Positions 56,912 to 64,000 of a stretch of DNA of 64,000 bases are shown piece after piece; the first letter of the stretch is position 1, and each line of letters starts with the position of its first letter. A program made the translations under genes and the position numbers. The DNA comes from Mesaphorura yosii (lineage: Eukaryota > Arthropoda > Collembola > Poduromorpha > Tullbergiidae). The notes under the pieces are model-generated. The model was not told the DNA's origin and made no database searches. It saw only the letters and a list, made by a program, of their open reading frames with translations. The stretch is taken from NCBI GenBank assembly GCA_009869945.1, contig WIXG01000194.1, positions 87,718-151,717 on the forward strand, written 5' to 3'.

Positions 56912-59900
56912 CTAGTCTACAAACATGGTCTTATCCGTACTCGAACTGAGACGCTTGCGAATATTCGACGGGAGGATAACAGAAACATGCTCTGGGGCAC
57001 CGCGTTGGTCGTCGCTGACGCTGGCAAAGACAAATGCCGCCGAATACGTCGTGCTGGCGGATCTGCTGAGCGAATTAAATTTGGCCGAGTTGGATCTGTG
57101 CAGCGAACTGAAGCTAAAACTGGCACTCCGAGAGTACATCGAGTTGGAGCGCGTCAGAGCGTTGAGATGGTTGAAGTTCATGCCGTGAATGTAAAATTTG
57201 TCGAATTTGGGGTTCAATCCGTCGACGAATGGAGCAGCAACAGTGTCCGTAGGAGTGGCACCGATTAATTTCAGTTCCATTGTCAGAGGGCCATGATGCG
57301 GATCAGTGTACGCTTTGCCAATGCTGTACACTCCGCTCTGGATCAAGAATTCTTCAGTTTCACTGCTTGGGTCTGATTTGGTCTCTAATGAAAGTGACGA
57401 CTCTTCAGTGCTACTTGATTCTGACTCGGATTCAGCCTCCTCTTCACCTGGACTATCTTCTGCGCCTCCATCGCGCTTAGAATTTTCTGGTTTATCGCCG
57501 TAAAAAAGTTTGTAGTATATGTTCACTGCGCGCTTTGCCTTTCTGGCGGACCGGGTACGTCGCTTTTTTGATTCTGAATCGGAAGACGAGGCATCATCAT
57601 TTGATGAGTCACTGTTGCTGTCACTCGACTCGTCGTCCTCCGTAGAATATTCAGAGTTGCCGTCTTCCGAGCATGCGTAGCAGTCTTTCGTTTTATCAAT
57701 CACAATATGGAACACTCTCCAGAAGCTGACTTCCATATCACGGAGGTTGTAACATGGTGATGCTAGGGTTTTCTTACCCGGTTTTGCCAGTTTGGAACCT
57801 GTTTTTGATACTTCGAAGTACTTTTGACTGAATTGGTTCAGAAACTGTCGCTGGTCAACATTTTCGCAGGCTTGAAGGTCAGGCGCTGAAGTCGATTCAT
57901 CATGGCTGCGGAAACCGTTCACAATCACTGATCTGGAAGACATTGTGTCTGGTCCACAGCTGCCATTCAATGCCGGTACGGAAAAATATTTTTCGCTAAA
58001 TTTTGAAATAAAGTCATCTTGGTTCAGCTCAGTCTTGACGATTACTCGTTCTTGTGACGAGTCTTCAACAGAGAAGTCATCTTCTTCGTACTCGCCGAAC
58101 ACGTCAACGTCCCCAGCCCCAACACGTTCGTCGGACATGGACAAAGAATCAGACGAGGATTGAGACCTTATTCGACGCATACGCGAATTCTTTGCTCCCG
58201 GCCCGGTTTTTTGTGTTGCAGCGTCAGTGCTCATGACGTCTTCGAGATCTGAGTTCGTTGTCGTACTGCTGGTGCTGGTGTCCATTTCAGGATCGGGTTT
58301 AGGAGGTATCCGTTTGTAGACAAGTATGTCCTTGTAATATAGTTCTTCGGTCGATTGAATGAGCTTCCAGCAACCTGCAGGGCAATTATAAATTGAGACT
58401 CCAGAGAATTTGCTCAGAAAACATCATTCTTAACTTTTCTTACATGATTCTGGACTGAGATTGGTTTCAGCTGCTTGGTTCTGGCTTGACTCGAGCACCA
58501 ATTGATTCGTCGATTCAACTCGATCCGACTCCGCAGTGATTTCCGCCTTCTGCGTCCACCAACTCACGTCGCTGTTGCTGGCAACCGCATCTTTGATGAT
58601 GTTCGCAAACTGGTACGACTTCTGACACTTGACTTCAACCGTCACATCCACATCCATTTCAGCTGCCTTGTCGGGGCTCAAGAAAAATCGTAGAGCAGGC
58701 ACGACCTCGGATAGTGTGCAAACTGGTCCGAAGATGGGCTCTACGTCCAAGCACAAGCCACCGCCAACCGCATCGTCCGGATTGGTCCATAAATTATGAC
58801 AGCCAACCGACGGAATCCAGAGTGACCTTTCTTTCACCATCTCCCGCTCGAAGTTGGGTTCTGGGTCCGAAATCCCAAGTTTACGTATCGAAAAGCAGAG
58901 TTGACCCAGTCGGAAGATTTCCTCCTCGCTCTTCCCGTTCTGACTGATGGAAGTCATATTTTCAGCGAGAATCTGTCGTAATTTGCGGTACATGAGACTG
59001 ATTTTGTACAACTCTTTGAGCCGAGCCAGTTCTGGGTAGTAAAGACCGATTTCATCGTAGCTGCGCGAGAAATCGTGGGCGAATTGGGCGAGCGCCGGCG
59101 CGAGACTTTCACTACTTGCCTCTGGCACCAGTTCTGCCTGCACATTTCCAATCTTGTATGTGTATACTGGTTCGGAATCGCTTTCAAACTGATCTTCATA
59201 ATAAACTTCGCTGAATCGCAGCGAGAATCTGAATCCGGACTCCTCAAGTCTGCCTCGGAGTCTTATACTGCGGCAGAAGAATTGCAAATGCTCCGGAAGC
59301 CGAGACATGAGCCCGAGCTGTGCGTTGCGAATATAAAATGGGGAGGCTGCGTTCACTTCGACCCCTGCTGCAAAGTAACTGACCACCATCGCGACACGAA
59401 GTGCCGTCGCAGCGAATTCGGTTCCGACCAATCGTTCGAGGAGTTTCACTTCCTGGCACGGATGGCCCCGAGGGTCTTCAAATGTCAGATGCGCTCTGTC
59501 AATGCCATGCTCGAATATTTCGACCAGATCCTGTTCGCAGACAAGCCCACTGCAGCCGCCGGGGACGAGTTCATCTGGCCTCGTCACGAGGAATGAGATC
59601 GCACACGTTTCATAGTCAATCTGAAAGCCGTCGATGCTCCTGAACACCATTTCGGGGTCACTTTCGAACTGGAGCTGAATGGCGAGTACGTCAGTCCAGC
59701 CTTCAGGCGTAAACCGACCCACAGGCCACTTGAGCAGCTTTTCGATGTGGGAGTCTCTCAGCCGTTTGCTTGCCAGAAATGTTTGCATTGCCTTTTCCTT
59801 GGCCGTGTCGAAGTCCATCAGGTCACTGCGACCCTGGCGTACTTCGTTGAAGAGTATGTATGCTTGGAGATGTGCAGACGCTGTCGCTGTTGTCGTTGGG

Positions 59901-62836
59901 ACAGATGAGGCCGCTGATGCGTTAGCAGTCCCAGATATGTTCACTTTATCGCTGCAATACTGAAGCATAAACTGCGTCCAGACAGTTTCCACGTACTGCA
60001 GATCGGAGCAGTTAAGCGTCGGGATGTTGACAAGTGGCTCAATCTTCGGGAAGTGGACGATGCTGTTGAGGAAGTCCGAGATCAGCTGCGATTCGGAGTG
60101 CGTGATGAGTTGCGAAGAAGATTTTTGAAGACCTCTGCCAGTCCGTGAGTGAGATTGTAATTCTGAATCTGAGTCACTTGAATCGCCATCATTTAGCCAA
60201 TTATCGCCATTTTCTGGCTCCTGCTCCTGCAGTGCCCGAGACAGCTTCTGATTAGCCATCAGCATGATGGAAAACATGTGCTTGTGACTGAGGCAGCTCT
60301 GCACACTCGCCGAGCTCCCGGCCTCACTCTTCAGCTTGAACAGTGCTTCAGCCATCATCAGAATACAATTTCTGTACGCAAACAGTTTGCGGGGTTCGTC
60401 CTCCACCATGTCCATCGCACGGAGCAAGTGCGAGGCAGCCATAACCAGCGGGCCGTTTTGGTTCTTCGGCGGAAGTGCTTTGATCAGGTCCATGTAGCCA
60501 AATGCCGCATTGAGCGCCTGGTCCGCTCCGGAGCCCTGCACTTGCTCAATCGCCTTCTCATTTTTCGTCAGCGTCACGAGCGGTGTGTTCGTCTCGACAG
60601 AAGGCGGTGGGGCATCAGGCTGGTCGACCACAGGCTTTGCTTGGGGTTCCATTTGCTGCAATCGACCCGTCTTCTCGTCATACCCAAACTCCTGGCTGGG
60701 TACGGGGTCCGAGACAACGAGAGAGTCGACCGTCGAGTCGATTTCGAGATACTCTTTGAAGTCAAAGAACTCTTTCAACTGCTTCACTTCGACCTGAACC
60801 TTGGCGAGCACCGATTCATGAAAGAATTCGTCTTGCGTGAGCTTCGAGACACAGGGAACGAGTCTGTAGATACATTCAGGAGTGCTGAGCAGTGCCGTCT
60901 GATATGCAGACATGGATTCCAGCCAGTTGCACTTTACACGGTCGATTGTGCCCTGAATCAGGAGTCGCATGGCTTCGTTCATTACTTCCCCGTCGCAGTA
61001 GTCTTGCAGAACACACTCGGCTGCAGGCAGATTACGTTTCTCGAGATGCAGCAAACAGTCAGTCAGTGATTCATAGTCACAGGATTTAATGCAAGTTTCC
61101 AACTTTGATCTCAGCAGCCGTCTCGACTCCAGCCTCACGAAAGTGTCGTCGAATTCGGAAGGAGGCAGAAAATGGTAGGCTGCGACGATTTTTCGCACTT
61201 GGTCAAAACCACGGCACGATTTCTTCAGGACTCGAATTATGGCTCGATGCACTTCGTGGCACTCAATGGCTTCACGTGGATACAACGTAACTACAATTTT
61301 TATGCCATGAAGAAGTGACTCCGGCGTAAGTTTGCTCATAAATTCTATCAGTCGCTGCAAGTCGGTACAAAGTGACTGGGAGGAGGAAGACAAGTTTCGA
61401 AGAAGACTCTTGACTTCGGAGGAGTAGTAGACGACACGGTAAAAGTCCGGTTGGAGACCTGAGTCTTTGGGTACGTCCGGTCGAGCAAGCATGAAGTCCG
61501 GATGTGGACTGTTGAGCAGCCACTCTGCGGCTGCGTAGTGATTTCCCTTGGCTGCGAACGTGTCTGCAATATCACTCATATCGTAGCCTCCGATCAGGAA
61601 GCAGAAGTGGGCCAGAAGCGGGTCGCACTCGTCGTGGATTCGCATGCCAAGCTCAAACCAGTCTGGAACTTTTCGGTCGTCTCCGTCAGCCACGCCGAGA
61701 AGATTGCCCAGCATCGTCCAGAACATGGCGAGCTCCAGCTGCACGGCGATGAAGGCTTCTGATATGAGCTGGCGCAGGTCCAGCTTGTCTACCCGTTGCA
61801 TGACACACGCCATACAGAAGAGTGAGTCCATCTGATTCACTGCGAGCAAGGCACTCGCTTTATCCAACAATTTCTCCTTGCTCGTCTGATTTCGAAGCGT
61901 CCATACGACGATGTCAGACTCGGCGACCGTGAGACCTCGAGTGCGTGGGATGAACTTGTAGTTACGTTTCAGGTCTCCAACGTCCGACTTCAAATGATCG
62001 AGCGCTTGATTCACTTTACGATGCAGCTTCGGGAATTTAGCCCATGTTCGTGAATCGCCCCAAATGCTCGACGGTTTCGAGGGCAGATAGCGCGGCTTGA
62101 AGGCGAACAGGTCACCAACGAACTGCAGGAAGAAGTCATGGATACTTTGCATCGTCACTGTTACTTGTTCGTCGACTGATAAGAAACTGACGTACGGCGC
62201 GAGCATCGTATTCCAATGATGGGCTTCATTCAGGAAGCTCGAGTCACACAGCTTACACTTCCACGAGTTTGTTGAAGTGTCCGCGGGTTTGGAGTCATCG
62301 CTGGAGTCTATCACTTTGCTAAACACTCGAGAAAGAGACTCAAAGTAATTGTCGTCCACTTGTAACGCGTCAAACTCCGTTTCCCAATCCGCAATGCGTT
62401 GAGCGACGTGCCGCGAGAATTGTGCCTCGCCCACGTCGTAGCAAATGGCGCCCGCGACGTGCCTCGAGTTTCGAGCACGTTCAGCGAGCCGTCGTTCTGC
62501 GTTATACTGAGCTCGGAGCTTGGAAATGTCCAAGCCCAAGCCGTTGTCACCTGCATGTTCACTGAACAGGTGTCTGTACTTGGTCAGAAGTTCCTCGTCG
62601 GTGGGTAACCTACTGAGCTCTGTGTCACGGAGAATGTCGTACCGAGTTCTGGTCGCCTTGTTGGAGAGCACGCGGTATGCTTCGATCGTGCGATAACAAA
62701 GTTCTGTGTCTTGTCCCGGCGCTAATTTGTCGAGATGCACTTCGAGAATCCGTTTGCGGTAGGATCGGCGAATGTCGTCCTCCGAAGCGGCAGAGTTGAG
62801 GCCCAGTAGGCCGTAGTAGTCGATAGCGGCGTTCAT
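56912..62836 (-). CDS. Giant two-exon protein with a degenerate J domain, 1951 aa, family unknown
   Basis: Exon 1 is 62836-58444 and exon 2 is 58374-56912. The 69-nt intron (CAT|GTAAGA .. CTGCAG|GTT) joins in phase, and without it exon 1 stops within six codons. The start is the ATG at 62836; the open frame extends 14 codons further up only through non-ATG codons, with TAA beyond. Residues 4-75 form a J domain (IDYYGLLGLNSAASEDDIRR), but the HPD motif is HLD at 34-36, so Hsp70 activation is unlikely. A CxxC pair (CKLCDSSF) is near 210. The next ~1200 residues look mainly helical, without repeats I recognise. Around the junction lies CCWKLIQSTEELYYKDILVY, then low-complexity Ser/Asp/Glu stretches (residues ~1690-1790) and an Arg/Ser-rich end. 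I can assign no family. It is unusually large with a single intron, unlike neighbouring genes. Confidence 0.85.
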
Positions 62837-63688: not shown

Positions 63689-64000
63689 CTAGAGCCCGCG
63701 AAAACCCCTTGATTTGCGTAAATGACGACGCAACTGGAAATTTCTGGTCGATGGGAAATGGGTTGTCCCATTTGTTGGTTCGGGATAAGTTGTTGTCGGT
63801 GGAACTAGTGTACTGCCATTGGTCGGCCAGGGATTGTGAGTTGTGGGGGGATGGACTGTAGTTCCATTGGTCGGCCAAGAATCGTGGGTCGTTGGTGGAT
63901 AGATTGTAGTTCCATTCGTTGGCCAAGGATCGTGAGTCGTTGGTGGATGTACCGTGGTCCCGTTTGTCGTGCCATTTTCATTAGTCGTTGTGGGATAGAC
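63689..64000 (-). CDS. 3' end of a mucin-like Thr/Pro repeat protein (runs off the window)
   Basis: A minus-strand frame is open from the window edge to a TAG at 63689-63691 (103 residues). It consists of four 16-residue repeats of the type PPTTHDPWPTNGTTVH (repeat DNA at 63767-63958), with one N-glycosylation sequon (NGT/NGS) per repeat and many Thr for O-glycans. It ends in a basic, non-repetitive tail (RNFQLRRHLRKSRGFRGL). Extracellular peritrophic or mucin-like proteins look like this. The 5' part, including any signal peptide, lies outside. The longer methionine-started frame 63615-63926 in another phase is a shadow of the repeat. Confidence 0.6.
   Translation of the reverse strand, partial: VYPTTTNENGTTNGTTVHPPTTHDPWPTNGTTIYPPTTHDSWPTNGTTVHPPTTHNPWPTNGSTLVPPTTTYPEPTNGTTHFPSTRNFQLRRHLRKSRGFRGL
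63767..63958 (-). repeat. Four tandem copies of a 48-bp unit
   Basis: Each 48-bp unit encodes 16 residues ending WPTNG or EPTNG. Copies 1-3 differ at few positions; copy 4, nearest the stop, is most diverged. Confidence 0.85.

What the first reader, a model, noticed from the sequence alone, without database searches (positions are those of the whole stretch)
56912..62836. 1951-residue protein with HLD in place of the J-domain HPD motif
The sequence shows a J-domain start (DYYGLLGLNSAASEDDIRRSY) whose tripeptide is HLD; the codon at 62732-62734 is CTC where Pro would be CCN. The HPD motif is needed for J proteins to stimulate Hsp70 ATPase, so this is a J-like protein of another use. The rest, about 1880 residues, matches nothing I know, and the gene has only one 69-nt intron amid intron-rich neighbours. 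A retained regulatory or scaffold protein, perhaps lineage-specific, is the inference.
Basis: partly seen in the sequence, partly recalled or inferred. Interest (0 to 1): 0.75.

Follow-up and report, generated by a model that had tools for sequence, protein, structure and literature searches.

The report
Giant animal protein with J-like start
An animal gene encodes a very large protein that begins with a chaperone-partner (J) domain missing its key proline, and it proves to be one of a small family of such proteins in the same genome, one of which ends in what looks like a bacterial toxin domain.

Summary
Two exons (62836-58444 and 58374-56912, minus strand), split by a 69-nt GT-AG intron, encode 1951 residues. 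Residues 6-67 form a Pfam-grade J domain whose tripeptide is HLD; nothing else in it has a significant match in Pfam, NCBIfam or PDB sequences. The lost proline is not a private accident. The same 93-Mb genome holds two long paralogues (L015, L016), both HTD, and one decayed fragment; 38 of 38 other J-domain stretches read from this genome keep the proline. So this is a non-canonical (type IV, class C-like) J family lacking the proline, unnamed in the libraries searched. It has a Cys-Cys-His cluster, a most conserved core (residues ~1000-1295) and C-terminal tails that differ. L016 ends in a domain distantly related to bacterial polymorphic-toxin domains lying beside Imm30 immunity genes; L015's tail fits only a published URI-nuclease signature, unproven; the window protein has a Ser-rich, acidic tail. 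Best reading: J-like header, scaffold, exchangeable tail, with little or no Hsp70 ATPase stimulation, perhaps an intracellular conflict or regulatory family.

The parts
58444..62836 (-). exon 1 (residues 1-1464 and the first base of codon 1465)
58375..58443 (-). 69-nt GT-AG intron; the exon 1 frame meets a stop inside it
   Evidence: the join makes a C.W motif shared with paralogues
56912..58374 (-). exon 2 (rest of codon 1465 to the stop)
62636..62821 (-). J domain, residues 6-67
   Evidence: PF00226 41.9 bits, PDB J domains
62729..62737 (-). HLD in place of HPD (CAT CTC GAC)
   Evidence: paralogues HTD
62216..62257 (-). zinc-like C194-x2-C197...H207 cluster, invariant in the three paralogues
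   Evidence: zf-C2H2_jaz in L016 only at E 0.22, below cut-off
58952..59839 (-). most conserved core, residues ~1000-1295 (14, 22 and 17 invariant residues in the three hundreds 1001-1300)
56912..58300 (-). tail, residues 1490-1951: 18% Ser, 16% Asp+Glu; no second copy in the genome
   Evidence: no Pfam or NCBIfam match

Best explanation
The gene is a member of a small, strongly diverged family of giant intron-poor animal proteins. Each has an N-terminal J domain that has lost the proline of HPD while keeping H and D, a Cys-Cys-His cluster, a long middle, a conserved core and a tail that differs between members. Shown: the gene model by sequence, the homology, loss of the proline in all three members, tails without detectable likeness. 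Inferred: the J-like header still docks on Hsp70 or on another J domain but cannot hold H and D in the orientation that triggers ATP hydrolysis, so it tethers or competes instead of activating; the core is a family-specific scaffold; the tail gives each member its output. In L016 (and, on a signature only, L015) the tail looks like a nuclease domain of bacterial-toxin type, which suggests that the family acts in intracellular conflict such as defence, and the window member would be a regulatory version with a Ser-rich, acidic tail.
For: J domain over the Pfam cut-off in all three. Window vs L015: 21.7% over 1361 aligned positions, E 2.7e-55; window vs L016: E 1e-27 over residues 1009-1290; L015 vs L016: E 7e-63 over 761 positions. 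HLD, HTD, HTD in the family, against HP in 38 of 38 other stretches read (33 HPD, 4 HPG at a probable exon end, 1 HPS). Simulation of P34A: helix II runs on and H33/D35 lose their common orientation (PMC13012618, passages). J proteins with replaced HPD are a recognised type IV (PMC13254874, passages). L016 tail related to bacterial toxin domains beside Imm30; L015 tail fits the Tox-URI2 signature Y, KxG, [EQ]. A decayed copy on C739 points to gene birth and death. L016's contig also carries an NB-ARC frame, one of 52 NB-ARC match places in the genome, compatible with a conflict setting.
Against: No expression, structure or binding data; AlphaFold2 models without an alignment were unusable (pLDDT 34.9 and 42.0). 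In some systems HPD/AAA does not fully abolish stimulation (PMC13012618), so loss of function is not certain. The toxin-like domain is in a paralogue, not in the window protein; its database E-value is only 0.06, and no Pfam, NCBIfam, PHROG or PDB entry supports it. The URI reading of L015 has no sequence match. Imm30 was not found in the genome, though its control did not ring. T, T and L could be separate losses of the proline. With 52 places, the NB-ARC neighbour may be chance.
Confidence: 0.55

Rival explanations
1. A functional class C J protein whose HLD/HTD still activates a co-evolved Hsp70; the family is an ordinary co-chaperone family with unusual tripeptides.
For: H and D are kept in all three, and the window protein keeps Y-R-K in helix II where the genome's best canonical J domain has Y-R-K; an HPD/AAA variant can keep some stimulation (PMC13012618).
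Against: Other HPD changes abolish stimulation (PMC13254874, passages). Of the helix II pair aligned with the DnaJ contacts Y25-K26 (the equivalence rests on the recalled DnaJ sequence), L015 has Y-Y and L016 F-R.
Confidence: 0.2
2. The J domain is a relic without function, kept only as a folded cap; the protein works through the core and tail alone.
For: Pro lost in 3 of 3 members; the window loop after HLD is 3 residues longer than in the paralogues.
Against: Y8, L11, H34, D36 and Y66-D67 are among the invariant positions of three deeply diverged members, and residues 1-100 hold 15 invariant positions, more than any other hundred outside 1101-1300.
Confidence: 0.2
3. Assembly or base error, or contamination: the Pro codon or the whole gene is an artefact.
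For: One assembly only; no reads were available. L016's contig is short (17.6 kb) and, apart from homology to the window gene and an inferred intron, was not shown to be animal.
Against: Paralogues on two other contigs lack the Pro too; stop-free frames of 1488, 1640 and 1574 codons; animal-type genes near the window gene and trypsin and ABC-transporter frames on L015's contig; introns in the window gene and, by inference, in L016.
Confidence: 0.04

Closest known systems
Type IV (pseudo-) J-domain proteins such as Pam16 and DNAJB13
   Different: here H and D stay and P is lost; 1951 residues; no class A or B domain found by Pfam; likeness to DNAJB13 in PDB sequences is confined to the J domain and Pam16 did not appear among the 60 rows shown
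Bacterial polymorphic toxins: LXG toxins beside Imm30, and the HNH Tox-SHH/AHH group (PMC3482391)
   Same: L016 tail aligns over 89% of its length with a B. licheniformis LXG toxin C-terminus (28%) and, over 46 residues, with a Gloeothece relative; both lie next to Imm30 genes; constant front plus variable tail
   Different: the window member has no such tail; the header is a J domain; no Imm30 found in the genome, though the control did not ring; membership in Tox-SHH or AHH is not shown
HGT-chimeras of arthropods (PMC13389597, abstract and passages)
   Same: an animal gene with a bacterial-like interval in one protein (L016, if the tail homology holds)
   Different: no phylogeny made here, and that the host is an arthropod is not shown; the paper's main text has 0 occurrences of DnaJ, J domain, nuclease and chaperone; supplements not seen

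Membership tests
J-domain proteins (PF00226) | J-domain profile over the curated cut-off | tested here: met
   41.9 bits against 27.8; L015 45.1, L016 36.3
J-domain proteins (PF00226) | HPD tripeptide | tested here: not met
   HLD; paralogues HTD
J-domain proteins (PF00226) | stimulates Hsp70 ATPase | not testable with these tools
   needs purified proteins
Type IV pseudo-JDP | clear J domain with HPD non-conservatively replaced | tested here: met
   definition from PMC13254874 passages
Class A/B JDP | zinc-finger or C-terminal substrate-binding domains of DnaJ | tested here: not met
   only DnaJ found by Pfam over its cut-off
Bacterial polymorphic toxin | C-terminal toxin domain in the window protein | tested here: not met
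   no Pfam or NCBIfam match in exon 2
Bacterial polymorphic toxin | C-terminal toxin domain in paralogue L016 | tested here: inconclusive
   two-sequence bacterial profile scores it 25.4 bits, E 1.2e-6, best of 2000 shuffles 10.4 bits; tblastn E 0.06 in plasmids, none in phages; no Pfam, NCBIfam, PHROG or PDB support
Bacterial polymorphic toxin | linked immunity gene | tested here: inconclusive
   Imm30 not found in the genome, but no control genome rang either; other immunity families not searched

The most novel reading that the evidence does not exclude
Animals have their own polymorphic-effector family: a J-like header without the proline, a conserved scaffold and exchangeable C-terminal nuclease domains captured from bacterial toxin systems, deployed inside the cell with Hsp70 as docking site or quality gate; the window gene is a member that exchanged the nuclease for a regulated, probably disordered tail.
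Probability: 0.22. Interest if true: 0.8.

Novelty: new variant of a known kind. Interest (0 to 1): 0.47.

Why it matters
Whether J proteins with an altered HPD are accidents or selected devices is stated as open in a 2026 review (PMC13254874, passages). A family in which three diverged members lack the proline while H and D stay is a natural experiment on that point. If the toxin-like tails hold up, it also links chaperone-type headers to bacterial-toxin-type domains in animals.

Tried and rejected
Lone substitution in an ordinary JDP: not supported, the paralogues lack the Pro too. DNAJC13/RME-8: taken to be a separate gene on C602 with an HPD (L017/L060; the name is recalled). Bacterial or viral origin of the core: pattern scans of GTDB and IMG/VR contigs with alignment A2 gave 32 and 56 pattern stretches, 0 confirmed; tblastn gave 9 phage records for exon 1 of the window protein, all on the J domain, 34 plasmid records for L015, of which the 20 listed all begin at the J domain, and two chance-level plasmid hits for the L016 core, E 1 and 5. 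These scans use few, narrow patterns or few collections and do not exclude distant relatives. AlphaFold2 without alignment: pLDDT 34.9 and 42.0, so no fold search was made. Cox1 in the genome: none found. Rfam and tRNA scans of the window: nothing. Literature: nine searches; among the rows listed (lists were capped) I saw no paper on such a J family. The library is open-access PMC only; four papers were opened: PMC3482391 (passages and section 23), PMC13254874 (passages), PMC13012618 (passages), PMC13389597 (abstract and passages).
Full report
Gene model. The finding's coordinates are exact. A minus-strand gene starts at ATG 62836, has a first exon to 58444, a 69-nt GT-AG intron (58443-58375) and a second exon to the stop at 56912; the product has 1951 residues. 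The open frames (1488 and 503 codons) are far beyond chance. The start is plausible: no in-frame ATG lies in the 60 nt up to the upstream stop, and the J domain begins at residue 6, as it begins 9 and 14 residues into the first Met of L015 and L016. An upstream coding exon was not excluded. The splice is supported by sequence only: codon 1465 is split by the intron, and C1465 and W1467 fall on a C.W in both paralogues, in an otherwise weakly conserved stretch.

J domain. PF00226 scores 41.9 bits (cut-off 27.8), residues 6-67. The tripeptide is H34-L35-D36. No other Pfam family appears; NCBIfam hits are DnaJ-type models, all below their cut-offs. In the PDB comparison of the exon 1 protein, 59 of the 60 rows shown (of 63) fall on the J domain; the other is at E 0.17.

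Family. A search of the window's own assembly (93.0 Mb, 1127 contigs) found two relatives beyond the J domain: C420 (L015, frame of 1640 codons) and C877 (L016, 1574 codons). Pairwise: window-L015 E 2.7e-55 (21.7% over 1361), window-L016 E 1e-27, L015-L016 E 7e-63. Both have a J domain over the cut-off and no other Pfam family over its cut-off. A fourth locus, C739, keeps only short broken stretches, the best 57% identical to L015 over 44 residues. Conserved across the three: parts of the J domain, C194-C197-H207, and most strongly residues 1001-1300, with 14, 22 and 17 invariant residues per hundred. Only the best candidates are scored in such genome searches, so the family size is a lower bound.

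The proline. One search lists 44 J-domain match places in the genome. Three belong to this family: HLD, HTD, HTD. The other 41 lie in 38 fetched stretches; one place was read in each, and the 3 unread places begin at profile positions 31, 42 and 35 and look like the later parts of genes already counted. Of the 38 read, 33 show HPD, 4 show HPG at what looks like an exon end (a GAY codon split by an intron is the likely reading) and 1 shows HPS before a simple repeat. Thus 38 of 38 keep the proline and 3 of 3 family members lack it. Because the three share ancestry these are not three independent events; P to T and P to L are each one base change, so one or two losses are possible. Simulations report that Pro34 of DnaJ holds H33 and D35 in the same orientation and that P34A extends helix II (PMC13012618, passages). 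A review calls J proteins with a replaced HPD type IV and states that their purpose is open (PMC13254874, passages). The simulation paper also cites systems in which HPD/AAA does not fully abolish stimulation, so reduced rather than absent activity remains possible.

Tails. Searches with the L016 last exon (E up to 10) and the window's exon 2 (E up to 1) found only themselves in the genome; the L015 tail alone was not searched there, but the whole-protein search gave no match beyond its residue 1403 except itself. L016, after a Gly/Ser-rich stretch and an inferred intron, ends in a domain with an AHH motif. Its only plasmid hit at E up to 1 was the C-terminus of a B. licheniformis LXG polymorphic toxin (28%, 89% of the query, E 0.06), followed by two Imm30 genes; phages gave none. 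That toxin tail has one other plasmid relative at E up to 0.001, in Gloeothece, also beside Imm30. A profile from these two scores the animal domain 25.4 bits (E 1.2e-6); the best of 2000 shuffles scores 10.4. Two sequences make a thin profile; the animal domain matches no Pfam or NCBIfam model, and the Bacillus domain only two Pfam models below their cut-offs. A 2012 survey lists HNH toxin clades, Tox-SHH among them with Imm30, and a transfer of that clade to Daphnia (PMC3482391, passages); membership of our domain in that clade is not shown. L015's tail holds Y...KIG...E after a Gly/Ser-rich stretch, which fits the survey's Tox-URI2 signature, a very loose one, and found no relative. The window protein's last 462 residues are 18% Ser and 16% Asp+Glu.

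Setting. The window contig carries animal-type genes (rhodopsin-type GPCR, annexin, AMP-binding enzyme, zf-HIT: 4 of 10 frames tested); L015's contig carries trypsin, ABC-transporter and oxygenase frames. L016's contig carries a 1034-codon frame with NB-ARC and DUF7779 matches. The genome has 52 NB-ARC match places, many in long open frames on small contigs, so this neighbour fits a conflict setting but may be chance. Contamination is unlikely for the window gene and L015, less well tested for L016. The core was not found in prokaryotic or viral contigs by narrow pattern scans. No animal collection was available, so the family's spread is unknown.

Judgement. The mechanism (tethering or competition at Hsp70 or at other J domains, scaffold core, member-specific tail) is inference at about 0.55. 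The reading as an animal polymorphic-effector family is the boldest one not excluded, at about 0.22.

Noticed in passing
G000 C739, L076 5777-6162 minus: Decayed fourth copy of the family: short stretches similar to L015 residues ~896-960 and ~1198-1217, in different frames.
   Followed up: partly
L079 1628-4729 minus (C877), and 52 places in the genome: A 1034-codon frame with NB-ARC and DUF7779 matches lies upstream of L016; the genome has 52 NB-ARC match places, many in open frames of 400-1900 codons on small contigs. An expanded NLR-like set in an animal may deserve its own look.
   Followed up: partly
window 58024-57977 and 57856-57809, minus: A short motif, roughly F-[IL]-[SN]-[KQ]-F-S-[EQ]-K-Y-F-[SE]-V, occurs twice in the tail of the window protein (residues 1582-1597 and 1638-1653).
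   Followed up: no
window 57160-57041 minus (residues 1870-1909): Cluster of R-S-x-S sites in the tail, typical of basophilic kinase targets (by eye).
   Followed up: no
window 63709-64000 minus: Neighbouring frame with WPTNGTT..PPTTH-type repeats, mucin-like by eye, running off the contig end (the window ends where contig C194 ends).
   Followed up: no
L082 4345-5280 and 5744-6763 minus; L082 8801-9499 plus (contig C420): A 2OG-Fe(II) oxygenase frame (Pfam) with a similar frame beside it (by eye, isopenicillin-N-synthase-like), and a PALP-family enzyme frame.
   Followed up: partly
L055 (C420:13519) and L053 (C141:179165): A pair of similar J-domain exons; in the C420 copy HPD reads HPS and runs into a simple repeat.
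   Followed up: no
L059 (C15:226735-226908 minus): J-domain match with two in-frame stops that still keeps HPD: possible pseudogene or a frame across an intron.
   Followed up: no
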